From contig NC_060024.1 of assembly GCF_021134715.1 (NCBI RefSeq), positions 8,184,001-8,248,000 on the forward strand: 64,000 bases of DNA. The letters run 5' to 3'. This document shows, in pieces, positions 655 to 52,510 of this stretch (position 1 is the first letter of the stretch; each line of letters begins with the position of its first letter). Origin of the DNA: Daphnia pulex. Taxonomy: Eukaryota > Arthropoda > Branchiopoda > Diplostraca > Daphniidae. The notes under the pieces are model-generated. The model was not told where the DNA came from, did no database searches, and saw only the letters and a program-made list of their open reading frames with translations. Position numbers and translations under genes: made by a program.

Positions 655-1711
655 ATGGCATCTCGAAATTGGATCCTGTTCTCCGCTCTGTTCCTCCTGA
701 CGTTGTTGGTCCGGTCGAGTCAAGCCGAGGACTGGGAGTCGTTGCAGGACGACAGTTCTGACGACGGTGGCCAGGCGTTGGAAGAGAGCGACGACGAGGG
801 CGGAGAGCAAACGCTCGATCCTCGCCTCTTTCTCATTTTGCCGACGGGCGCCGGCAATTTGCTCAACTTGAACACGACCGGCGCCTTGTTGGCCTTGCTG
901 GGCACGGCCGCTCTCCTCTCCGCTTTGGGATTCCTCATCTATCACGTCGTCTCCAACAAGTTGATGATGAAGGGTCAGACCAGCTACGGATCGGGAGGTT
1001 ACGGCGGTGGCTCATCCGGCGGCTACAGCTCATACGGCACTGGCGGAACCGGTGGATTTGGCGCCGGTTCCGGCAGCAGTTACGGTTACGCCAGGTCCGG
1101 GTTCTTGCAAAACACATTTTAGACCTGATTATTATGCACACGAGCACTGGTTTCACAGTTGATTTGATTTTTTAAATTGTTTTAAAATTTGGCGCCAAAT
1201 GTTCAACATTTCAAAATATTTCATTTTGGTCTTTTTCCTGACTGACATTCAACATTAGATCGAGCGATGCCCCAATGGACTGGGACAGTCTCAAGATCCT
1301 CGACTACATTTCCATGATGGAAGAGATGTGGCGCAAGTTGGACGTTCACGACACCGGCTGCCAGAAGCGAATCCTCTGCGAGATCCATCAGAACGAAAAG
1401 GCTCTAGGACCTGCTGCTTCCAAGATCGTCAACGCATTCGGGTATTAAACCTCCTGTTTTTTTTTTTGTTTTTTTTTTGGCAGGCGCATAAGCCACGGGT
1501 AACTAATTTCATTGATTAATTCTGCAGATACACTCGCTACCTGTCCATGTTGAACATCCCGGACGCGCTGAAGAACATGATCGACGACTACCAGGATGCC
1601 GCTGACAAGGGGCGTTCCCTGCAGGACAAGGAATGCAAGGACGTGTTTGATTCGTGCGATTTCAGCGTCAAAGAAACATTCCTCAAGAAGCTGAAAGGCC
1701 ATCACGATTAG
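655..1711 (+). CDS. Gene A: secreted/single-pass four-cysteine protein (DM4/DM12-like)
   Basis: Three exons fit: 655-1094, 1259-1441 and 1528-1711, with both introns in phase 2, giving 268 residues. A signal peptide (residues 1-24) is followed by an acidic Asp/Glu stretch, a potential N-glycosylation site (NTT), one hydrophobic helix (about residues 75-100) and a Gly/Tyr/Ser-rich tail that ends exon 1. Exon 2 carries GCQKRILCEI and exon 3 carries DKECKDVFDSC, a C-x2-R-x2-C-E plus C-x3-F-x2-C arrangement like the arthropod DM4/DM12 family, whose function is unknown. The first donor (GTCCGG) is weak, but the frame and the homologous layout in genes C, D and E support it. The start at 655 precedes the signal peptide directly. 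The family assignment is inferred from the cysteine pattern only. Confidence 0.8.
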
Positions 1712-7929: not shown

Positions 7930-7956
7930 ATGAGTGGACTCGGAATCGAGAAATGA
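7930..7956 (+). promoter_or_regulatory. Upstream ORF overlapping the gene B start
   Basis: An ATG at 7930 opens an eight-codon frame whose TGA stop (7954-7956) overlaps the main ATG (7953-7955) in an ATGA arrangement. Such overlaps are known to permit or limit reinitiation, so this may tune translation of gene B. The uORF lies in the exon that begins at 7890. Confidence 0.55.
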
Positions 7957-10214
7957 GTCTGACATTTGATTATCGTCGACTTCCTTGGCTGTTGCTTTTG
8001 TTGCTGGTCAGCGAGGGAACGTCCGACTACCGGGACGGTTTCGAGTACCCGTTCATCACAACCCGCCATCCTGCGCCAGTTCGATCCTATTCAATGGCAC
8101 CGGGGTGGCGGCAGTTTTATCCGGAGGATTACGACTTTAGCGACTACAGCCGTCACATCACTCGCTCGGATCCGGCATCTCGCAACAGCGCCGCCGAGCA
8201 AATTCCCAGTGGGCCTTATTTTGCCCAGGAGCTCAAGAGGTACTACCACAAGCCGGCCGAGGAGCCGCACAAGGTGTACCAGACGTCGTGGAACATGATC
8301 GATTCGGAAGGCAACGAATATTCCACCGTCTACAATCGACCCGCAATGACCGGCTACCATCGCCCATCGTCTTTAGCTTCTTCTTCTTCCGGCATTCTAC
8401 TGCCCACCGATCAGTATCCGTTCGTTTTGGACGCCTGGCAACAGCAGCAGCAGCAGCAGCATCACGTCGAGCAGCAGCCAATAAAAGAGCGGCCGACACG
8501 CAAACCCATCAGCAAGAAACCTGTGCGCAAGAAGAACAAAGGAGTGCGGCCCATTCATCCAGGTATGACCACCACACATTATACAGCACTCGTCTATCCG
8601 CCGTGACATTTTGGCCAGACACCAAAGACTCGCGGCCGCCCAGCGTTTAATGCGGCAAATGTTGCGTGAAATTACGGTACCTCTGACAGGCCCTCGTATA
8701 TACCAAGTCGAAAAAAAAAGGGTAGGCCCGGAATAGCTCTCTCTTTCTTATTTATTTTTATAGCGCTTATACTACATCCTAGTTATAAATACCTCTAGTC
8801 GGTGGCTATATAATTATTGCCCATATTGTTTCCGCTTGACCGTGAAAACCGCCATTCGTTTAGTCGAGCTGGACAATAAAGGCTACGCACATTTTGGTGG
8901 GGCCGAGTTCGATAGTTTAATTGTCGTTTCTAATTTTTTTTTAAAAGACTAGATTTCTACATGGCGTATGATATTAAGCGATATTAAGATCGCCATTTCA
9001 CATCACGCTAATGACCTATCGCAAACCTAATGTGGAATTGAGGTTGGAACTCGGCAGACCACTAGACGCTCGTTTAGTCCAAGTTCAACCGCGTTCCATT
9101 TCCTTATTGCCGATTGAACCAGGATAACGACTTGGGAGTCGAGAAACCGGCAGGGTACAGCATAGCCAAACGTGTTATATACATTGAACACAATGAGATG
9201 TATAACCTTATTAGCTCAAATGAATTGGAAATAAGGAAATGTTGATTCCGATAGGAATGTTTGCTGTTCCAGTAACATTAACAGTATAGCTGTAACCATC
9301 GATAGATTGCTGGCTTCTTATACAAGGAAGATACGACGAGCCAATGGCGAAAACTGAAAACCCAGTTTCTGAGCTCACGTATTTTGTTACACAATCTCAA
9401 CGTTATTTTTTTCCTGTTGACTTTGTCAGTCCAGTTATAGAATCCACTATAGCGATTAACGGATTATGTTTTTTTTCTCTCTCTCTCGATCAAGCCGGTT
9501 ACCAACAGCTTGTAACCAAGATTCCGGATAAAAAACACCAGTTCGACATTGACAAAGTAGCCGACGGACTTGCACCCCAGTCGATCGCTTCTGCGTACCC
9601 GAACGGCGTCATGGGCACTTTGTCCCTTATGGCCGGTCTTGTTTGGTACCTGGTCAACAAATCGGCCACGCCCGTCATCAAAATGCGCCAGAATTCGCGG
9701 GGCTACTCCGACAGCTACAGCAACAACGAAGACGAAGAGTCGTTGACACAGACGGCCATCAACCAGCTGGCCGATTACTGGCTGGGCTCTCTCAAGCAAA
9801 CCGATTGCCAGCAAAGGGCCGTTTGCGAACTCGTCTCCCAGTCCTCCTGGCTCTCTTCAGCCACACGATGGAGTCAATCCGCTTATCGGTTAGTATACAA
9901 ACTTGAATTCAACTCGATTAGGTTCAATTCGTGACGGTAGAATATCTCCTGAATGACAAGAAAAATGGTTTGTTTGTTTGTTTTTTAATTGAATTTTCTC
10001 TTGGGGATGAATAAACAGGTCACCAATGGTGCAGAAGGCCATCGACTCGTTCATAGAAGAGGAAGAACTGGGCGTCCAGTTGGACGATGATGAGTCCAAG
10101 TTGGCCTTGCTCGTCCAAGCCGCTTCTCACGGCGAGCAGGGCGTCGACTGCGCCGCTTTCTACCCGCACTGCTCCCTGCCGTTTCACGAGGAATCGCGAG
10201 ACCGTCGGCGCTAA
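7953..10214 (+). CDS. Gene B: secreted/single-pass four-cysteine protein with poly-Gln tract
   Basis: Exons 7953-8562, 9495-9888 and 10019-10214 join with phases 1 and 2 to give 399 residues. A Leu-rich signal peptide is followed by a long Tyr/Pro/Ser-rich extracellular part, a run of Gln/His encoded by CAG repeats near 8440-8470, and a Lys/Arg-rich segment. Exon 2 contains a hydrophobic helix (LSLMAGLVWYLV) and DCQQRAVCEL; exon 3 contains VDCAAFYPHC. The cysteine pattern and the phase-2 intron between the two Cys pairs match genes A, C, E and F, so this is a divergent paralogue with an expanded N-terminal half. The first intron (8563-9494) holds no other gene. An AATAAA-rich tract follows the stop by about 200 bp. 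Confidence 0.78.
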
Positions 10215-13744: not shown

Positions 13745-14450
13745 TTTGGTGGCGCATTAATTCAAATCGGATCTTTTGGAAACAGGAAATTTGTATCGCT
13801 AAAATATTTATTGTGATAATATCGTTTCATGTAGCCTATACTTTTTTGTGTATTTGGCTGATGAGCCCGCTTAAAAAATGAACTATTCGATTAAACATGG
13901 GATTGGATTTCACTGGAATCAATAACAGAAACATGGAAAAAATATACTTTGCAGCAATAATCGAAAAATGTTTTTGAAAAATGTGTTACACATATACTCA
14001 GGAATGAGATCGATCCATCGGGTTAGGTTAGGTAAGTTAGGTTGGGGAGGTGCATGCATTGTTGTGATATGCTTGTATTCCCTATTTAACAGGAGAATTA
14101 CGTTGAGGTTCTAGAGCAGGGAAGATAGCCAATCCTATGCTAGAGAACTCCCGGACCGGTTGTCGATCGCCCGAAGGGTTCGCCGTAGGGATTCCGCAAC
14201 AGAACATATCACTGCATCATCAGTTGATGAAAGTCTCATATCCTAGAAATGTTAACATGGGGTGCTTTGGGACTAGCGCAACACACCTCCACCTGGTGGC
14301 GGAAGTTGTAAATTTGAATGCCTGCTTGGGGAGTCGAACTCATGGCTAGTGAGATGCCCGCCGCAGCTCTGCCACAGCAGGACACACTTTTGCCGACACA
14401 CCCAAACGTCCTCTTTGTTAACTTCAATAAATAAATCATTTTGTTTTAAA
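13745..14450 (-). repeat. tRNA-headed repeat, copy 1
   Basis: This is the first of three head-to-tail copies of a dispersed repeat. Shared blocks include AATTTGTATCGCT...TATTGTGATA near 13785-13825 and AGCAGGGAAGATAGCC near 14114-14129. The right end, read on the minus strand (about 14412-14325), resembles a tRNA, with a box-B-like AGTTCGACTCC. A short TTAGG-like stretch (14021-14044) lies inside it. It is probably a long SINE-like or composite non-autonomous element. Boundaries are approximate. Confidence 0.55.
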
Positions 14451-15470
14451 AAATTCTAAAATTTATGACATCTAATTAAATACTCGGCGATACTTCAGAA
14501 ATGAAGAAAAGTAAATTTCAGACTTGACAAGGACCGATTGTTTTCTGTACGGGGTTACATAATAGTTCCTCTCAACAACAGACGGGCGAAAAACAAATAG
14601 AAAAAAGGTGAATGTTGCGCCAAGGACGCGCTTATTTATTCTGGCCAATAATTTGTATCGCTTAATATTTATTGTGATATCGGTTTATTCTCGAGACAGG
14701 TAGTTACTTTTGTGTATTTGACCGAGGAGGTCAAATTTGAAAAAAATTTAATTTTGGCTTGGAATAAATAAACAAAAAATCCGTGATTAATGAGAATATA
14801 ATTTGTAGAAAAAAAATTAACTGACACCTACTCTACGGGAATGTACGGTATGCATTGGTGAGTCACCGATATAGGTTCATTCTCGAGACGGTATACTTTT
14901 TTGTGTATTTAGCTGATGGGCCCGCAAAAAAAATGAACTATTCGATTAAATATATGACTGGAATAAATAACAAAAACATTGGAATAAGATAATAAATCAA
15001 ATAATAAATAAATAATCACAAATTTTTTTTTTAAAGCTAAATTCTACTCAGGAATGGGACACATCGATTCATGTAACACATGCGTTGTTGTGATATATTT
15101 GTATTTCCTATTTAACAGGAGAATTACGTTGAGGTTCTAGAGCAGGGAAGATAGCCAATCCTATGCTAGAGAACTCCCGGACCGGTTCTCAAACGCCTTC
15201 AACGAAGGGTTCGCCGTAGGGAATTCGCAACATAACATACCACTTGCATAGTCATAGGTCGATGTAAGTCTCACTCCATGATATTTTTTTGGACTAACGT
15301 CACACCCTCTGGTGGCGGAACTTATAAATTTGAATGCTTTTTTGGGGAGTCGAACTCGTGGCTAGTGAGGTGCTCACCGCATACGCAGCAAGACACGCTT
15401 TTACCGACTCACCCAAACGTCCACATTATGTAATAATTAAACTAAGCTATAATTTTAAAAAATTCTAAAA
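14451..15470 (-). repeat. tRNA-headed repeat, copy 2
   Basis: The second unit begins with AAATTTATGACATCTAATTA, contains the GGGGTTACATAATAGTTCC and ATTTATTCTGGCC blocks, and ends with a tRNA-like head read on the minus strand (about 15422-15340, with boxes resembling A and B). It is about 1 kb long and joined directly to copies 1 and 3. Confidence 0.55.
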
Positions 15471-16385
15471 TTTATGACATCTAATTTAATACTCGGCGAT
15501 ATTTCAGAAGTGAAGTAAAGATAATTTCAGACTTGATAGGACTTGACGATATTTTTCTGTACGGGGTTATATAATAGTTCCTCACTTCCTCTCAACAACC
15601 GACGGACGGGAAAAAAAAAAAAAAAATAAAAAAGGTGAAGGCTGAACCAAGGATGGACTTATTTATTCAGGCTGACATGAAAATAAAGGAAAACTTATTT
15701 CTTTGTACAGAAGGGAACGAATAAATATAACGTAGATGAACATAGAGAACATAGGGAACATTTAATAACGAACAGAATTGAAATATTAACATGGTTTAAG
15801 TTTATTACTGGGGGGGAGAGGAACTTATTCCAAATTGGAATTTCGGAAACGGGAAATTTGTTTCGCTAAAATATTTATTGTGATATCGGTTCATTCTCGA
15901 GACCGTTTATTTTTTATGTATTTGGCTGACGTCGTTTAAAAAATAAAAATTGACTTTAAATTTTTCCTTGGTATAAATAGAAACAATTTTTTTGATTAAT
16001 TTAAGGAATTATTTTAATACTCACGTAATTGGATCGATATCGGGAACGCCTGCATTGAAAGATATGCTGGTGTGACGGTATATAACACCGAGACACGTTA
16101 CTAGGACGGGCTTCATACAGTTTGCAACATGGATGACGCCCTTCCCCCCCGCAGGGTAACGCAACAGAGCATATATTATCAATACATGACAATACGCCAA
16201 TGCAAGTCTCATCCGCTGATTGGCTGACACAAATTATCCATTAATGCGAACTGCAACATGGTGCATGCACTCTGGCGGCGATGTGTGAAAGTGATTTTCC
16301 TTTTATGTGGAGTCGAACTCAGGTCTGTCCGTACACGAAGCGGCGCTTTATCCAACTCAGCCAACGCCCTTCACAGTTTATTATC
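15471..16385 (-). repeat. tRNA-headed repeat, copy 3
   Basis: The third unit has the best-preserved tRNA-like head. On the minus strand a box A match TGGCTGAGTTGG (16363-16352) is followed by AGTTCGACTCC (16319-16309), a box B match. This supports a Pol III-transcribed, tRNA-derived origin for the family. Confidence 0.6.
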
Positions 16386-17433: not shown

Positions 17434-19306
17434 TTATTCCGACGATTGGATGAATTTCTCTATGCTGCCCTTAGTCATGGAACATTGGTCGTAGGCAGCT
17501 TTGCAAACTTTTCCTCCCTTGCCCTCGTTCCAGGCCATCAGGTAAGTTTTCGCCCGTTTGTGGTTCTCCAAGCGTTCAGTTAGCGCTTTGTGAGCGTCAG
17601 CCGAGCTGCAATTCGATTCGGTCAGCGAAAAATTCAATCACACTCTTAGGAATCACAATCGTTATAGCTAGACACTAGAGGAATAGTCGTATAGATACCC
17701 GAAGAAAGAATCGACCGAGTGTCCGAAGCTCTTTTCCGGGAATGTGGCCGGCATCTTATGGCCAGCGCCGATCTCACAGATGATTCTCTGGCGGCAAGCT
17801 GGCTCGTAAACTTGGGCGCGCTCGAAGCTGCGATGCATGTTACTGAGCATCAACGACAACGATTCAGTCCCGTCGTCGTTCAACGATCGCTATACGTTTA
17901 ACCCAAATTGTATCGCATTATTTCGGAACGGAATTGTAATAAAATTCGAATCATGATTTTGATCAGAAATGATATGAAACCAAATGCAAAATGAACTAAC
18001 CGTCGTCGTTGGAGTGTTCATTCCTGTCAATTTCTAATCGATTTTAATAAAGAAAAAGGTACCTTGATTTTGTTATCAGAGAGTGTGGTAACGTGGGCCC
18101 AGAACATGGTGGCGGCCGCCACACCCAGTCCCAGAACGAGAAGACCCGACAAGTTTAGGGTGTAATTGAGCGACGACGTCGACGGTGACAGCTGATTTGA
18201 CAGACATCATTCAAATTAAAGTGGATTGACATTGACAAAAAAAGGCGTTGTTTTTGCTTTCAACAATATAGAAGTCGGTCAGCGTCAGTCGTCAGTCGCG
18301 TCACACACACATACCAACCAAGAATTACGTCAGAGCAGACAGCGAGGATTGGCGCAATTTGATTGTGAGGCATATTCGTCCGGTATAGTAGATGCGTCAG
18401 AAAGTCATAAGTAGAGTAATAAACACTAACCTCAAGAATTCGGTGGTCATTGGTTAATTGGGCATGCGTGTAGTCCGAGTGAGAAAAATTATTTGCACAT
18501 TTTATCTAGTCCGTTTTTGTTTTTTGTTTTTTACCTTGAGCAAGTGGCTACGGCCGCGTGATGTGCTGTCCAATAAGTTATGCGTGTAAGCCCAAATGCA
18601 GACGGCCGCCGATAAGGACATGCCCAACAAGACGATGCCGCTCAGGTTGAGCGTCGAGTTGGAAGTCGCTCCGGTCAGCTGATCACGCGTGCATTTTCGC
18701 CAAATAATGGCGACATTAATAAGGAGGTAACGTCAAATGACCCAAACCAAACAGTTAATTACCACTCGACCACCACACACAACCGGTGTACGGTATATGC
18801 CTTTTCGCTATTCGCTTGTGTTTGTTATTTCACAAATAATAACCACTGCTGTCGAGTCAACTATTATTATACCGGGACATCACACACTGGTGCTAGCTAC
18901 ATGCATACCTTATTAGACTCAGTTACCTGGTAATTGTTTTTTATCCTCAACCAGCAAGTAGACAAAATTAAATAAATAAAAATAAGCAAGTTAAGCTTTT
19001 GACGAATTTAAAGTCGTGTGAAAAAGGACGTCTTTCAACTGTTTCTTTTACGCCTAGATAAGTGGTGTCTTTTTGTCATCGTCGTGAAAGTATACTCACT
19101 TATTTGAAAATAAATTTTAAAACAAAAATAATGAGGGGGAATCATATTATTACCGAAATAACTCCGTAGCGAGCTTCCTCCTCCATGTTGCCATCGTCCG
19201 GGTAAGTAGGAAAAAGGTTTTCAGCATTGGCTCCGTTCACTAGGGCGGACAGGCCAAACAGCATGAGGGCTACCGTGACCATCGCAATTCTTTCACCTCG
19301 TGCCAT
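17434..19306 (-). CDS. Gene C: four-cysteine membrane protein with two alternative helix exons
   Basis: The minus-strand exons are 19306-19154 (51 codons, signal peptide then acidic linker), one of two membrane exons (18678-18535 or 18191-18063), 17889-17699 and 17605-17434. Choosing one membrane exon gives 219 or 214 residues. The exon after it carries ACRQRIICEIG and the last exon carries VCKAAYDQCS, the same four-cysteine module as in genes A, B, E and F, split by a phase-2 intron. The ATG at 19306 lies just after a plausible acceptor (pyrimidine tract then CAG ending near 19310), which fits a non-coding first exon upstream at 20459-20595. Function is unknown; a cell-surface or secretory-pathway role is inferred from the architecture. 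Confidence 0.8.
18063..18191 (-). other. Gene C alternative membrane exon 2b
   Basis: This 129-bp exon starts after CAG and ends at GTACCT, phase 0 on both sides. It encodes 43 residues beginning LSPSTSSLNYTLNLSG, followed by a hydrophobic helix rich in Gly/Ala/Leu. It can replace exon 2a without changing the frame. Inclusion of both, giving two helices, is also frame-compatible. Confidence 0.75.
18535..18678 (-). other. Gene C alternative membrane exon 2a
   Basis: This 144-bp exon starts after CAG and ends at a GTAAAA donor, phase 0 on both sides. It encodes 48 residues beginning LTGATSNSTLNLSG, then a hydrophobic helix and a basic tail. It is clearly homologous to exon 2b (same leading Leu, Asn-Leu-Ser-Gly motif, helix position and Ala-x-x-x-Trp-Ala ending). 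Confidence 0.75.
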
Positions 19307-20458
19307 GCTCTGCATTGTAGGAAAACCAAAGATATTCATTTCCTTTTTTATAGATTCATATTGTTTTTATAGTGTCGTGTGACAGAAATTTCCCTGGAAA
19401 AATAGTTAACACGAAGAAATAAAAAGTCGAAAAGTTCAAGAGAAACAATGGGCGCGGAATATAATCAAAGACGGAAGTGCACCTTCAATTCCTCAAATTC
19501 CGTTCTGAAGACGACGAGGATAAACCTGAATTAGCGCAGACGGACTTGTGCATGTCATTTCTTTTTCGTCGCTGTCAACCATCAGGAAACATCCTCAACA
19601 ACCAAAGTAATTTCACTCGAGTACAATTATGCAATTATATGTATACGTTGACCGCAATGGCGCCAGATGTTTCTTTCGAATGCTATACCCGTCTATTTAT
19701 TGTGCATATCTAATGACTTTTTTTTTTGGTACCTAGGCCTAACGGATTTTTCGTTTGTTCGTTCGCAGAAGAAATTTAGAGGTCCCCGCACTGGATAACA
19801 AAAAAAAAATAAAATGACGGACAGTTTTGATTTACACTGGCGGATTATTTGTTGCATCACGGCGCGATCTCAATCTGACCGCGTCGTTACATTGTTTTTC
19901 TTTCGTGACCGTATCACCCTGACAACAGCAGCTGCCCGCCAGTGTGCGGCTAGTTCACGCTCCGTGGAAGATACCTTCGTATTATAGCTGCATGGCAAAA
20001 ACTATATGGCTCGATTGTTTATGATAATAGCCAGCTCAAACACAGTGGGGGTTTACGTCATTTCCATAGATTGTGCAAGTCGCTCTCTTTCAACAGGTCC
20101 AAAGATCAATGGCCGGGCGCACGATAATTTTTCTTTTTTTTTTTTTGAACAGTAGGCTACGTACGCAAGAAAAACTGGGGATAGGGTTTTCTCATAATAC
20201 AGATTGGAATTTTGATTTTTTTTTAATTATTATTTTAATTTGATTGGCCGACGCAATAAAAAATATCTGCCGGTTTATTAACAACTAGAAACCGAATCGA
20301 ATCTTTGAGAACCGAATTACAGTTATTTTCAGATATTGGCAATTTTTTAGGTTGGTTTTTCGATCCCCATCAGCCCTACCCCATCCGTAAAATTTCAGTT
20401 ATTAGAGAAAGTTTCATATTTCACACATTCCGGGGAAAGAAATAACAGATTTCCATAC

Positions 20459-47858: not shown

Positions 47859-49013
47859 TTAGAATCCGTCACACTCAAAATGGACTTTGTTTCTTCGTGC
47901 GCGCGTGCCGCGTCGTACAGGTGGTCTTGGATGTTGATCGCTGGCGGCCGGAACAGTTGCTACATCGGAAGGAGTGGGGGAGTCGTTCACGCCCGTTAGG
48001 CCGCAGCTCGACTCGTGGTCACCATCGCCGCTCGCCCCGCCGGAAGGAGTTGCACCGCTGTCCGGAATCGCCGACATGGGGCGGATGAAACGTCGATTGC
48101 GCCATAGGACGCTGCCGCTCGCGAATTTGATGCGGTATGACCGGTACCGACCGATGGCCACGATGAACCCAACTTTGTCCCACAGTTTGGACTTCGGATC
48201 TCGGACGCGTACGGCTGTGCCAACAGAAAGTGGCCCCAATGGCCGGGCATGTTCGTCGTAGCGGAATTTAATGACGGCGTCGAGTTCCGCTTGGCGATCC
48301 ATTGCTTCCATAACTTTCTGCCACTGGGTCGCGAAGGAGGATCGATGCGCTAGGACGATGGATCGCAGTTGGTGGCCGAACACCATCTCTGCCGGGGAGA
48401 GTCCATTTTCTCTGGGGGTGTTCCGGAACTCCAGCATCCCCTGGGCGAAAGCTTCCGACGTCACGTCGCCGGTTGGCGCAATTTTGGCTACGAGATCCTT
48501 CATGGCCGCCACCGCCGCCTCGGCATGCCCGTTGCTTTGGGAGTAGCCCGGGGTCGAATTGCCCCAAACGACTCCCCAGTTGCGTAACTTGGACTGGAAA
48601 GCATGTGCCTCAAATTGAGGGCCGTTGTCGGACCAAAGTATTGCCGGGACGCCGAGATTGGTGAAAGACTCCACGATGGCCTGAGAAACCTCGCGGGCGG
48701 ACGGATCATGGAACCATCGATGAACAACGGGCCAGCCCGATAAGCGATCCACGTACACCAAAACGTGAAGCTGACCGAACTGGAAAAGGTCCGTGGAGAC
48801 GTCCTCGAACACCCGCGTAGGCAGGGGGTCGTGCAAGAGGGGCTCCTGTTGGTGATGGGGCCGCCGCTCCTGGCATGGTTGGCAGCTCTCCACTAAGAAG
48901 GTTATTTCGTTGGAGATTCCAGGCCAATAGACCGTCTGCCGGGCCCGCCATCCCATCCCGTCATCCGCACAATCCCCTGGTGGGCCGCATGGAGCTTCCC
49001 TAATACCTTGCAC
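47859..49013 (-). pseudogene. Ty3-like element: integrase
   Basis: The segment contains the second half of the zinc-binding site (CQPCQERRP) and the catalytic triad: Asp in VYVDRLSGW, Asp in LWSDNGPQFEAH and Glu in NGHAEAAVAAMK. It ends with a chromatin-binding-type C-terminal region and a Pro/Arg-rich tail. It is in a different frame from the upstream RNase H segment, with the shift lying between the HxxxH and CxxC halves of the zinc site, so the domain is disconnected from pol in this copy. Confidence 0.85.
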
Positions 49014-50041
49014 CGGGCGGATAGTGGAACGATGATCCGGCGGCCGAAAAGGACGATTCCGTTATCGACTGATAAGGCTTCTCGGATGGCCCAATACTGG
49101 CGCACCGACTTTGACGTTTTGTCTCGAGGAGTGAGGAAACCAGACGAAATGGCCGTCACAAGGTCTCTGTAGTCGGCGTCAGCCGCGGCCGCCGCTCTCA
49201 GTTGGTCCAGCATGGGGTCCGGCAGGTGGTCGGGTTCAGTGCCGGGATCTGGCTCCGCGGTGTCGTCGGTGTTGCGTTGCAAGACCTGGATCTGACCCAG
49301 AACAACGTGTCGGGCAAAGGACGAGGCGTCCGTGTTGGCAGCTTCGTCGTCTGGGCCCAGATCGTGGACGGGAGCTCGAGATAAGGCGTCTGGAATGGCG
49401 TGATCGCGGCCTCTGCGCCACTCTGTTGTGAAGATGAAAGGGGAAAGGCGCTCTTTCAAACGCTGCAGTTTTGGATTTTCGACGGCATCTAGCGTATATT
49501 TGTCGAGGATGGTGACGAGGGCTTGATGATCAACGACAAGGCGGAAGTGAGGTAGGCCCAGCAGATACAAGCGGCATTTACTCATCGCCCACTCGACCGC
49601 CGCCAATTCTAACTCCACTATGGCGTATCTTGACTCAGTGTCGGTACACCAACGGGAGTTGGCATCCACCAGCTTCCAAATTGATCCGTGGCGCTGGAGT
49701 AGAGCGTAACCCATCCCCTGCTTGCGGGAAGCATCCACTTGGAGGGACGTTTCCAGATCTGGGTCAAAATGGGCCAAGATAGGCGGCGCTGTGAGTGCGG
49801 CTTTGACTGCCGCGAACGCGCTGTCATGGTCTTCGGTCCAAATGAATGCGTTGCGGGCGCTCAGCAGAGGACGTAGAGGGCCCTTGGCAGCGGCCACCTC
49901 CGTGGAAAATCCGGCCAGCTGCTCGACGAGCCCCATAAACGATCGGAGTTCGGTGATATTGGTCGGACGCGGGAAGTCCGAGATGGCTCGCACTTTATCG
50001 GGGTCTACAGCAACACCTCCCTGTTGGATTTGGAAGCCCAC
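48902..50041 (-). pseudogene. Ty3-like element: RT thumb/connection and RNase H
   Basis: The segment starts at the RT palm/thumb ([18 protein letters not shown]) and continues to RNase H, with acidic residues in [22 protein letters not shown] and LVVDHQALV. Next come [13 protein letters not shown] and the HxxxH half of the integrase zinc site (LHAAHQGI). It follows the upstream RT segment in the same frame after a TAA stop at 50045-50047, and ends where the frame shifts near 48960. Confidence 0.85.
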
Positions 50042-50044
50042 CCA

Positions 50045-50638
50045 TTAAACTTGCGGTTGGGCAAACTGGAATTTCTTGATGTTGAACGTAATGCCAGCGT
50101 CCCGGGCCGCCGATAGGACAGCACAGACGCCCATCACATGTTCTGGAAATGATGAATCGTACCGAAGGAGGTCGTCCACGACGCGGACGGTCTTGCCGAC
50201 ACCTTGGAACGCTAAGTCCGCCCTTCTGTTGTATTCGTCGCTGGAGCTGCTCAACCCCATAGAGGCTCGCAGGAACTTGTACCTGCCCCACGGGGTCATA
50301 AACACTGTTAAATGCTGCGATGAAGGGTGTAGTGGAATTTGAAAATACCCGCTGGCCGCGTCAAACGTTGAAAAATAGGTGGCGTCGCCGCTGATCTCGG
50401 CCACTGCGTCTCTCGGAGTCCGGGTAGGATGAGTGGGCCGCCGCACGTGACGATTCAGCTTGGTGTGATCTACACAAATACGTAAAGATCCGTCAGATTT
50501 GCGCGTGATGACCAGGGGGGCCGCCCAGTCAGACGCTTCGGTCATGGGGATGATGATACCTTTTTCCACGAGGCCGTCCAGCAATTTCTTTACTTCCGGT
50601 CGGTCTGCGAACGGGATTGGGCGAGCGCCGTTGACATT
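50045..50638 (-). pseudogene. Ty3-like element: reverse transcriptase core
   Basis: RT motifs are WAAPLVITRKSDGSLRICVD, TFDAASGYFQIPL and the active-site region with two Asp in VRVVDDLLR, where most relatives have Tyr or Phe two residues before the Asp pair. The segment is in frame with gag but separated from it by a TAA at 50639-50641, and it ends at a second TAA. Confidence 0.85.
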
Positions 50639-52510
50639 TTACGGTTCCGCATCGTCCTTCAACTCGATGACCATCTCCGGCCCTTTCATTTCGGTTAGTA
50701 TACCGGACTGGTCGAACACATCGGCATAGCCCCGGGCGATGGCGTCTCCAATCCGCAGGATCTCATCTGGGGACGGAGATAATGGGAGAGGGCCGTCATA
50801 CACGAAAGATGGTGGGGTTGCTCCGATAGAGCTGACAGACGTACCCTTTTGTGAATGTCTCCATGGACGAGGGTAATCCTCGTGCAGGATGCCCAAAGCG
50901 ACACAGTCAAACCACGACAGAAGGACGCCATCCACCTCCGGGCAAAACGTGAAGGTGATCGCTGCCGTTATCCCCTCATAACACACTGTAATCTCCTTCT
51001 CACCGACAGCCAAGAGGGGGGTAGACTTATCTGCCATTGCAAGGTCAAACGCCGCGGATGCGAGGTCTGTTTCTGATACGCCCAACGCACGCATCACATC
51101 GAGGCCCGCCACTGTAACTTCAGCCCCACCGTCGGGGGTCACGTTATGCACGGTGGTGATGACCTCCCCGGCCGAATCACAGCACTGTAGAGAGATGGTT
51201 GGAGCAGGACGACGGCGTTTTGCACAGACGTTGCCGATGACTACGCGCTGCATATGAGAACGCGCCCGACTGCTGCCGGCATCGCCCCGACTATGGGCGC
51301 CGCTACTGGAGGTGCCACCGTTGCCGTGACCGCCGCTGCTGCCACCATCCGCTCCGGCCCCTTCCGTTTTCTCCAGCTTGCGATTCTTCGGACAACACGG
51401 AGAAAAGTGATTCGTGCCACCGCATCGGTGACATTGCTTACCGGTCGCTGGGCAGGGGTCATTAGCGCGGTGCGCGGATCGTCCGCAGGAACCGCATCTA
51501 TGGTTGTCGGATGCCATATCGGGACGTTGACTCTTCGACTGGAGCTGTGCGACTGACGGCGGGTGATTCAGCGATTTCTCACTGGCCTTAGCTGACTCGT
51601 CACTGCGGCAGATGTTAATGGCCTGCTGACCGGTCGGATATGGGCTGAGTGCCAGCAGCTTCCTCCGCGTCTCCGTGTCTCGTATGCCGGCCATGATGCG
51701 GATAGCCATCCGAGAGTCCAAGCACGCGGCACACATGTCAGCTGCGTCCGCAAGCGTCCGGAGGCGGATGTAGAAGTCGTCGAAGGATTCGGACGTGTGC
51801 TGTCGGCATTCATCAAACGCCACGCGGTCCAACGCGATGTTTCGCTTAGATCGAACGTGATCCGTGATGCGGTCGATGACGTCAGAGGGCGATAAGGGCG
51901 ACGTGGGAAGGATGCCCAAAGCCACCTCCACTACCTGCTGCATGGCTGGATCCAGCGCCATCCGGAATGCCGCCATCTGCTCATTCACCGGGTAGGCGTT
52001 CAATTGGTTCAAGTGGCAAAAATCGTTCCACCGATTCCGCCAGGAGTGGAGCTGGGCCAGAGACGCGTCTCCGTGCAGTTTCTCCAAACAAGAGGTATCG
52101 ATGCGACGGCGTTGGGAAGCCCCGCCACCACCAGCGCCACCGCCGCCTGCGCCGCCGCCTGGGCCACCTCCGCCAGCGCCGCCGCCTGGGCCACCTCCGC
52201 CAGCGCCACCGCCGCCTGCGCCACCTCCGCCTGCGCCTCCTCCACCAGCGCCACCGCCGCCAAAGAGCAATAGCTGAAGTTGTTGCGCGATGCCGGTCAA
52301 TTGTAATTCGACTGCGTCAATGCGATTGGCCGCTGCCACTGCCGCATCCATAGCGTCATTTGCCGACGCCATGTTGCCGACCACCACAGGAGGACCCGCG
52401 AGTGATGAAACTGGATGCTGCTTGGTGCGTTTCCGCCTCCGCTGCACCGGGAGAGGAATGTGCGGTGGGACCGGGCCAGATGAACGTAAGTTACGAGGAC
52501 ACGTCGACAT
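50639..52510 (-). CDS. Ty3-like element: gag with zinc knuckle and protease-like region
   Basis: The open frame runs from ATG 52510 (or the later ATG at 52372, which begins MASANDAMDAA). A Gly/Ala-rich repeat tract (about 52110-52270) precedes a capsid-like region, a zinc knuckle CHRCGGTNHFSPCC (C-x2-C-x4-H-x4-C), a Gly/Ser-rich linker and a retropepsin-like region with PDGGAEVTVAG in place of the usual D-[ST]-G-A. The frame stops just before the RT. This is transposon coding sequence, not a host gene. Confidence 0.85.
   Translation of the reverse strand: MSTCPRNLRSSGPVPPHIPLPVQRRRKRTKQHPVSSLAGPPVVVGNMASANDAMDAAVAAANRIDAVELQLTGIAQQLQLLLFGGGGAGGGGAGGGGAGGGGAGGGGPGGGAGGGGPGGGAGGGGAGGGGASQRRRIDTSCLEKLHGDASLAQLHSWRNRWNDFCHLNQLNAYPVNEQMAAFRMALDPAMQQVVEVALGILPTSPLSPSDVIDRITDHVRSKRNIALDRVAFDECRQHTSESFDDFYIRLRTLADAADMCAACLDSRMAIRIMAGIRDTETRRKLLALSPYPTGQQAINICRSDESAKASEKSLNHPPSVAQLQSKSQRPDMASDNHRCGSCGRSAHRANDPCPATGKQCHRCGGTNHFSPCCPKNRKLEKTEGAGADGGSSGGHGNGGTSSSGAHSRGDAGSSRARSHMQRVVIGNVCAKRRRPAPTISLQCCDSAGEVITTVHNVTPDGGAEVTVAGLDVMRALGVSETDLASAAFDLAMADKSTPLLAVGEKEITVCYEGITAAITFTFCPEVDGVLLSWFDCVALGILHEDYPRPWRHSQKGTSVSSIGATPPSFVYDGPLPLSPSPDEILRIGDAIARGYADVFDQSGILTEMKGPEMVIELKDDAEP
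52110..52270 (-). repeat. GC-rich minisatellite coding the Gly/Ala tract of gag
   Basis: Tandem 15-18 bp variants of GGTGGCGGCGGCGCT code for repeated Ala-Gly-Gly-Gly-Gly units inside the gag frame. Confidence 0.8.

What the first reader, a model, noticed from the sequence alone, without database searches (positions are those of the whole stretch)
17434..19306. Two homologous, phase-compatible membrane-helix exons in gene C
Exons 18678-18535 and 18191-18063 are both phase 0/0, both start after CAG with Leu, and both encode an N-L-S-G motif followed by a membrane helix with an A-x3-WA-type end. They are diverged duplicates of the same structural unit. Mutually exclusive use would switch the transmembrane segment and its flank while keeping the extracellular Cys module, a regulated topology or partner switch. 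Use of both would add a second helix.
Basis: partly seen in the sequence, partly recalled or inferred. Interest (0 to 1): 0.8.

Follow-up and report, generated by a model that had tools for sequence, protein, structure and literature searches.

The report
Swappable membrane-anchor exons in water fleas
A water-flea gene carries two different versions of the exon for its membrane anchor, and each of its two current reference isoforms uses one of them; a neighbouring gene of the same family also seems to swap its anchor, by a different route that lobsters and shrimps appear to share.

Summary
The window is Daphnia pulex (gene C protein 100% identical). Exons 18678-18535 (2a) and 18191-18063 (2b) are phase 0/0, homologous, and the only membrane-type exons a scan of the gap found. 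RefSeq models one isoform with 2a (X1) and one with 2b (X2), so one-or-the-other use is already annotated. Both exons are the best-conserved parts of the protein against other Daphnia (79-91%, other exons 65-78%). Two of seven models hold both exons, so double inclusion is not excluded; no RNA reads were available.

Gene C is a PF07841 (DM4_12) protein. New here: gene A in the same cluster has two alternative first exons, each with its own hydrophobic anchor (window 655-1094 and C8:8182564-8182973). Homarus and Palaemon isoforms repeat both anchor types on an identical module.

Closest precedent: Dscam exon 17. Function and regulation remain untested.

The parts
19154..19315 (-). Gene C exon 1: signal-peptide-like segment (by hydropathy) and acidic stretch; RefSeq start at 19306, further in-frame ATG at 19315; donor TCG|GTAATA, phase 0
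   Evidence: matches P0001/P0003
18535..18678 (-). Exon 2a: alternative membrane helix and 18-aa juxtamembrane linker, phase 0/0
   Evidence: RefSeq isoform X1
18063..18191 (-). Exon 2b: alternative membrane helix and 11-aa juxtamembrane linker, phase 0/0
   Evidence: RefSeq isoform X2
17699..17889 (-). Exon 3: first Cys pair (C-x5-C) of the DM4_12 module
17434..17605 (-). Exon 4: second Cys pair (C-x6-C) of the DM4_12 module and stop codon
655..1094 (+). Gene A first coding exon A1: its own signal-peptide-like segment and membrane helix; donor phase 2
1259..1441 (+). Gene A common exon: first half of the DM4_12 module (PF07841 E = 2.7e-6 for the spliced protein)
1528..1711 (+). Gene A common last exon: second half of the DM4_12 module
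7953..8562 (+). Gene B exon 1 (hydrophobic N-terminus, long polar region)
9495..9888 (+). Gene B exon 2 (hydrophobic segment and first Cys pair; PF07841 E = 0.0047 for the spliced protein, below the curated cut-off)
10019..10214 (+). Gene B exon 3 (second Cys pair, stop)

Best explanation
Gene C encodes a small membrane protein with a DM4/DM12 (PF07841) four-cysteine module. Its anchor exon was duplicated in tandem before the D. pulex and D. magna lineages split. Each mature mRNA normally takes one of the two copies, so the same N-terminal region and the same module are joined to one of two membrane helices with different juxtamembrane linkers (18 aa with 2a, 11 aa with 2b in D. pulex). The choice most likely sets where the protein sits, or with what it pairs in the membrane, as in Dscam exon 17. 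Shown: duplication, frame compatibility, conservation of both copies in D. magna, separate RefSeq models. Inferred: mutual exclusion in vivo, its regulation, and its effect on sorting.
For: Homology of 2a and 2b. RefSeq X1 and X2 differ only in this exon and share an identical 121-aa C-terminal stretch. Between D. pulex and the three other species, 2a is 79-81% and 2b 81-91% identical, against exon 1 75-78%, exon 3 65-68%, exon 4 70-75%. The two copies stay distinct in D. magna (15 of 41 aligned identical) as in D. pulex (18 of 41), with no sign of homogenisation. 5 of the 7 models that cover the region carry exactly one of the two exons. Lengths within 5 aa, equal phases and homology meet the criteria of PMC3228551; in its Drosophila X-chromosome count only 0.56% (90 of 16,180) of the exons not mutually exclusive shared those features (section 13 read). 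The neighbouring gene A appears to swap the same part of the protein.
Against: No RNA reads were seen. Two of seven models carry both exons: P0002 (old D. pulex) and P0004 (D. magna). 2a+2b keeps frame and the intron between them is 343 nt, so neither frame nor, presumably, size enforces exclusion. No docking/selector arrangement stood out: one 14-nt, 86% complementary pair joins introns 1 and 2; the intron 1-intron 2 duplex is 1.9 s.d. stronger than its 30 shuffles on average and equals the strongest of them, the other two intron pairs are unremarkable.
Confidence: 0.8

Rival explanations
1. Both exons are cassette exons and a 2a+2b isoform with two helices is a main product, which would move the Cys module to the other side of the membrane.
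For: P0002 and P0004 hold both exons; the combination is in frame.
Against: The two RefSeq D. pulex isoforms among the hits carry one exon each, and so do P0005 (D. sinensis), P0006 (D. carinata) and P0007 (D. magna). P0002 also carries 11 extra residues, 9 of 11 identical to a 33-nt stretch (18033-18001) that lies in an intron of the RefSeq models, so it may be a loose model.
Confidence: 0.15
2. One of the two exons is a decaying relic that is rarely used, and its isoform is an annotation artefact.
For: No expression data could be seen; the stretch -20 to -4 before both acceptors is pyrimidine-poor (0.35 and 0.47). 2b was not seen in D. sinensis, nor 2a in D. carinata.
Against: Both exons are the best-conserved parts of the gene across the Daphnia models, and each has models of its own in at least two species (2a: D. 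pulex, D. sinensis; 2b: D. pulex, D. carinata, D. magna). The acceptors of exons 3 and 4 are similarly pyrimidine-poor (0.41 and 0.47).
Confidence: 0.05
3. The anchor swap controls release: the exon 2/3 junction makes a basic site, and only 2b supplies a basic P4 residue (KIKR-S in D. pulex, RLKR-S in D. magna and D. carinata; LLKR in D. pulex and LFKR in D. sinensis with 2a), so a furin-like protease would free the Cys module from the 2b form only.
For: P4 is basic with 2b in 3 of 3 species and with 2a in 0 of 2 species whose models join 2a to exon 3; the D. magna 2a end would give FNKR, also not basic at P4, but no D. magna model with that join was seen. In gene A relatives, 7 of the 8 proteins compared have K or R within three residues of the join.
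Against: It needs the junction on the luminal side, whereas one helix after a signal peptide predicts the cytosolic side. The last K of exon 2 is partly fixed by the splice consensus AAG|GT. The furin rule is recalled, not run.
Confidence: 0.15

Closest known systems
Dscam exon 17 (17.1/17.2), arthropod Dscam1
   Same: Two tandem, mutually exclusive exons encode alternative transmembrane segments on a constant protein; TM1 forms are largely restricted to dendrites and TM2 forms enriched in axons (passages of PMC2566808 and PMC1397879).
   Different: Unrelated protein; here a small DM4_12 protein with no known function. Sorting roles are untested, and a second gene of the cluster seems to swap its anchor by alternative first exons instead.
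Tandem duplicated exon substitution events
   Same: Homologous neighbouring exons, one per transcript, mostly ancient (passages of PMC9741552; passages and section 13 of PMC3228551).
   Different: The swapped unit is a whole membrane anchor in a small protein of unknown function; the enriched groups named in those passages are ion channels and nerve or muscle genes.
DM4_12 / DM4-DM12 family, PF07841
   Same: Both isoforms and gene A pass the curated Pfam cut-off and have the four cysteines.
   Different: Here a membrane helix precedes the module, and the helix is interchangeable. How common a preceding helix is in the whole Pfam family was not tested.
Osiris family (DUF1676)
   Same: Most planthopper Osiris proteins have a signal peptide and a transmembrane region; two (Osiris17, Osiris24) were reported with a DM4_12 domain (passages of PMC12825958).
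   Different: No DUF1676 match in gene C, gene A or gene B.

Membership tests
Mutually exclusive tandem exons | Neighbouring internal exons of similar length | tested here: met
   48 and 43 aa
Mutually exclusive tandem exons | Same splice phases and reading frame | tested here: met
   Phase 0/0 for both
Mutually exclusive tandem exons | Sequence homology between the exons | tested here: met
   0 of 20,000 shuffles in each of two controls reach the score; genome-wide E = 5.9e-4
Mutually exclusive tandem exons | Transcripts carry one exon and not both | tested here: inconclusive
   Gene models only: 2a alone 2 of 7, 2b alone 3 of 7, both 2 of 7; no reads available
DM4_12 (PF07841) | Score above the curated Pfam cut-off | tested here: met
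   28.8 and 28.9 bits for X1 and X2 against 22
DM4_12 (PF07841) | Four conserved cysteines | tested here: met
   C131, C137, C197, C204 of P0001; C178, C184, C241, C248 of gene A relative P0011, invariant in 18 of 18 aligned proteins
Osiris | DUF1676 domain | tested here: not met
   Pfam scans with E up to 10 for gene C and up to 1 for genes A and B
Dscam exon-17-type sorting switch (works like) | The two anchors send the protein to different membranes | not testable with these tools
   Needs tagged isoforms in cells

The most novel reading that the evidence does not exclude
A pancrustacean DM4_12 family in which the membrane anchor is a standing, regulated cassette. Gene A swaps N-terminal segment plus helix by alternative first exons, with both anchor types kept from Daphnia to lobsters and shrimps. 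Gene C in the same cluster reached the same kind of protein choice by duplicating an internal exon. The anchor would decide membrane retention, sorting or release of one shared Cys module.
Probability: 0.4. Interest if true: 0.7.

Novelty: new member of a known kind. Interest (0 to 1): 0.5.

Why it matters
Dscam exon 17 is the only anchor-swapping exon pair with a worked-out sorting role that I met in the passages read. This locus offers two neighbouring paralogs that seem to change the same part of a small protein by two different genomic routes, one of them apparently older than the branchiopod/decapod split. That makes it a compact test of what a transmembrane segment does besides anchoring, and gives the DM4_12 domain, called function-unknown in PMC12825958, a concrete experiment.

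Tried and rejected
AlphaFold models were too weak to use: mean pLDDT 39.8 for isoform X1 with 5 sequences and 57.1 for gene A relative P0011 with 18 sequences (74 of 265 residues at 70-90, none above). The Foldseek PDB search of the latter gave 141 matches, 0 of them at E <= 0.001; the profile search of solved structures gave none at E <= 1. Cysteine pairing and topology therefore stay open. No signal-peptide or topology predictor was available; 'signal-peptide-like' rests on hydropathy.

Competing RNA structure: pairing of intron 1 with intron 2 gave -130.9 against a mean of -117.4 (s.d. 7.1) and a minimum of -130.9 in 30 single-base shuffles; the other two pairs were -57.7 (mean -65.1) and -62.4 (mean -57.0). 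The repeat search gave 3 inverted pairs, one of them between two introns. Suggestive at most, and without related DNA neither proof nor disproof.

A wider search with a profile of five gene C proteins scored 7,993 candidates (capped) and returned 9 proteins at E <= 1: the 8 already known and P0010 (E = 4.4e-12, 28% of the query covered), which was not examined.

Other tandem anchor exons in the genome: searches with 2a and 2b found none. The Pfam model gave 17 exon-level matches in the genome at E <= 1, none on C8, presumably because the module is split by introns; those loci were not examined for anchor exons.

Similarity of the gene C anchors to the gene A anchors: not detectable (2a z = -0.3 and -1.2, 2b z = 1.0 and -0.3), so common origin of the two swaps is not claimed.

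Literature: no paper found naming these loci or holding 'DM4 DM12'; PF07841 and related words led to one relevant paper, PMC12825958. Further searches. Only open-licence PMC papers are held. PMC7318467 (Daphnia splicing) was looked at in passages only; the term DM4 does not occur in its main text, and its supplements were not read.

Full report
What was checked. The window is C8:8184001-8248000 of a 133 Mb genome. The gene C protein is identical to D. pulex RefSeq LOC124200304, so the species is Daphnia pulex. Gene C lies on the minus strand: exon 1 19315/19306-19154, 2a 18678-18535, 2b 18191-18063, exon 3 17889-17699, exon 4 17605-17434.

More than chance. The two exon peptides align at score 83, with 0 of 20,000 full shuffles (maximum 62) and 0 of 20,000 block shuffles (maximum 78) reaching it. 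In the whole genome each exon finds only itself and the other at E <= 10, 2 candidates scored in each search. A scan of the 1,264 nt between the exon 1 donor and the exon 3 acceptor for open phase-0 AG..GT spans of 90-213 nt with a membrane-type segment returned 3 spans: 2a, 2b and a shorter part of 2b.

Use of the exons. The protein search returned 8 proteins at E <= 10. Seven are Daphnia models covering the region; P0008 is a partial unnamed protein without it. 2a only: P0001 (RefSeq X1) and P0005 (D. sinensis). 2b only: P0003 (RefSeq X2), P0006 (D. carinata), P0007 (D. magna). Both: P0002 (old D. pulex model) and P0004 (D. magna). That RefSeq X isoforms normally rest on transcript evidence is recalled; the evidence itself was not seen. 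The proteins show both exons readable in D. pulex and D. magna; whether 2b is intact in D. sinensis and 2a in D. carinata was not seen, since no DNA of these species was available.

Conservation. Against D. pulex, 2a is 38/48 identical in D. magna and 39/48 in D. sinensis; 2b is 36/43 and 35/43 in the two D. magna models and 39/43 in D. carinata. Exon 1 is 75-78%, exon 3 65-68%, exon 4 70-75%. The fifth row of that call, the old D. pulex model P0002, is left out of these ranges because it is nearly identical (94-100% over all exons). The three other species are close relatives of one another, so these are not independent comparisons. The swapped exons are nevertheless the best-conserved parts of the protein, and each copy keeps its own identity in D. 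magna. The duplication therefore predates the split of the D. pulex and D. magna lineages (put above 100 million years by recall).

What differs between isoforms. Helix core: NLSGIVLLGMSLSAAVCIWA against NLSGLLVLGLGVAAATMFWA. Linker from helix to module: 18 aa with 2a (25 in D. sinensis), 11 aa with 2b. Two N-x-S/T sequons sit directly before the helix in both forms; at that distance glycosylation is unlikely by recalled rules, so they may serve as a helix cap. The exon 2/3 junction reads K-R-S in both forms, but a basic P4 residue occurs only with 2b.

Topology. A signal peptide, cleaved or kept as an N-in helix, followed by one helix leaves the C-terminal module in the cytosol (recalled rules; no predictor was run). 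Charges flanking the helix point weakly the same way: in the 25 residues before it K/R 1 and D/E 3-4, in the 25 after it K/R 3-4 and D/E 0-4 (five proteins). Four conserved cysteines and a basic junction would suit the outside better. The structure models could not settle it. A double-helix form would place the module on the opposite side from the single-helix forms.

The family around it. Gene C and gene A (655-1094, 1259-1441, 1528-1711, plus strand) both pass the PF07841 cut-off; gene B (7953-8562, 9495-9888, 10019-10214) is a sub-threshold relative, E = 0.0047. A search with gene A returned 31 proteins at E <= 0.01; I read 23 of the 31. Among them P0011 and P0014, from unnamed sources, share an identical 123-aa C-terminal stretch but have different N-terminal halves, each with a hydrophobic start and a helix. 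The P0014 half lies in the D. pulex genome at C8:8182564-8182971 at 72% identity, about 2.1 kb upstream of gene A's ATG on the same strand. Its donor CCG|GTAAGA (exon end 8182973) is phase 2, like that of exon A1, and joining it to gene A's common exons gives an open protein. Gene A's module occurs once in the genome apart from a weak relative on C7, E = 3.7e-4, so A2 has no other close module to join. P0011 and P0014 run through positions that are introns in D. pulex, which suggests transcript sources; that is inference. Of the other proteins read, several are exon A1 running on into what would be intron, as unspliced genomic contigs would give.

Decapods. Comparing helix regions, I used 13 of the 31 proteins: 8 match A1 (Palaemon X4, Homarus X1, Procambarus X4, Cherax X1, two Petrolisthes, P0011, P0012), 4 match A2 (Palaemon X3, Homarus X4, P0014, P0020) and 1 (P0030) is undecided. 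For the 8 decapod proteins, 0-5 of 400 shuffles reach the score with the matching type, and the other type is at noise level (z from -1.5 to 0.6). A1 and A2 are themselves weakly alike (z = 2.9; 2 of 400 shuffles reach the score), and P0011, P0012 and P0014 show the same weak cross-likeness. With 400 shuffles per pair these are supports, not proofs. The decapod gene structures were not seen; alternative first exons there are inferred from the shared C-terminus and isoform names.

Reading. Two genes of one cluster swap the anchor and keep the module: gene C by an internal tandem exon pair, gene A, it appears, by alternative first exons. The anchors of the two genes are not detectably related, so this may be convergence. 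The closest known case is Dscam exon 17, where two alternative transmembrane exons direct the protein to dendrites or axons (passages of PMC2566808; PMC1397879). Gene C is a new member of that kind of switch; the pattern across paralogs is the newer part.

What stays open. Exclusion in real transcripts, tissue or stage regulation, membrane topology, cleavage, and the biochemical function of DM4_12. No convincing regulatory RNA pairing was found.

Noticed in passing
C8:8182564-8182973 (+), 1437 to 1028 bases before window base 1; fetched locus L030: Alternative first coding exon of gene A with its own hydrophobic start and helix, phase-compatible with gene A's common exons.
   Followed up: yes
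window 18033-18001 (-): 33-nt open AG..GT span, phase 0, between 2b and exon 3, reading KLTGMNTPTTT; old model P0002 has an 11-aa piece here identical at 9 of 11, so it could be an optional micro-exon or a loose prediction.
   Followed up: partly
window 18555-18571 and 18673-18689: 17-nt inverted pair, 82% complementary, whose second arm spans the acceptor of exon 2a and whose first arm lies inside exon 2a; it could hide that splice site, but was not tested against chance.
   Followed up: no
window 13837-15626: Roughly 1-kb unit present twice in tandem (six segments 83-94% identical, spacing 1009-1055), with a related piece at 15870; probably a repeat element.
   Followed up: no
window 48001-52000: G+C rises to 0.585 against 0.34-0.46 in the other 4-kb steps of the window.
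   Followed up: no
window 34461 (-): An isolated C-x2-R-G-L-C-E motif matched the Cys-motif scan; stops nearby, not examined.
   Followed up: no
G000 C7:2736178-2740534 and C7:8992376-9030774: Other clusters of exon-level PF07841 matches in the genome, not examined for swappable anchors.
   Followed up: no
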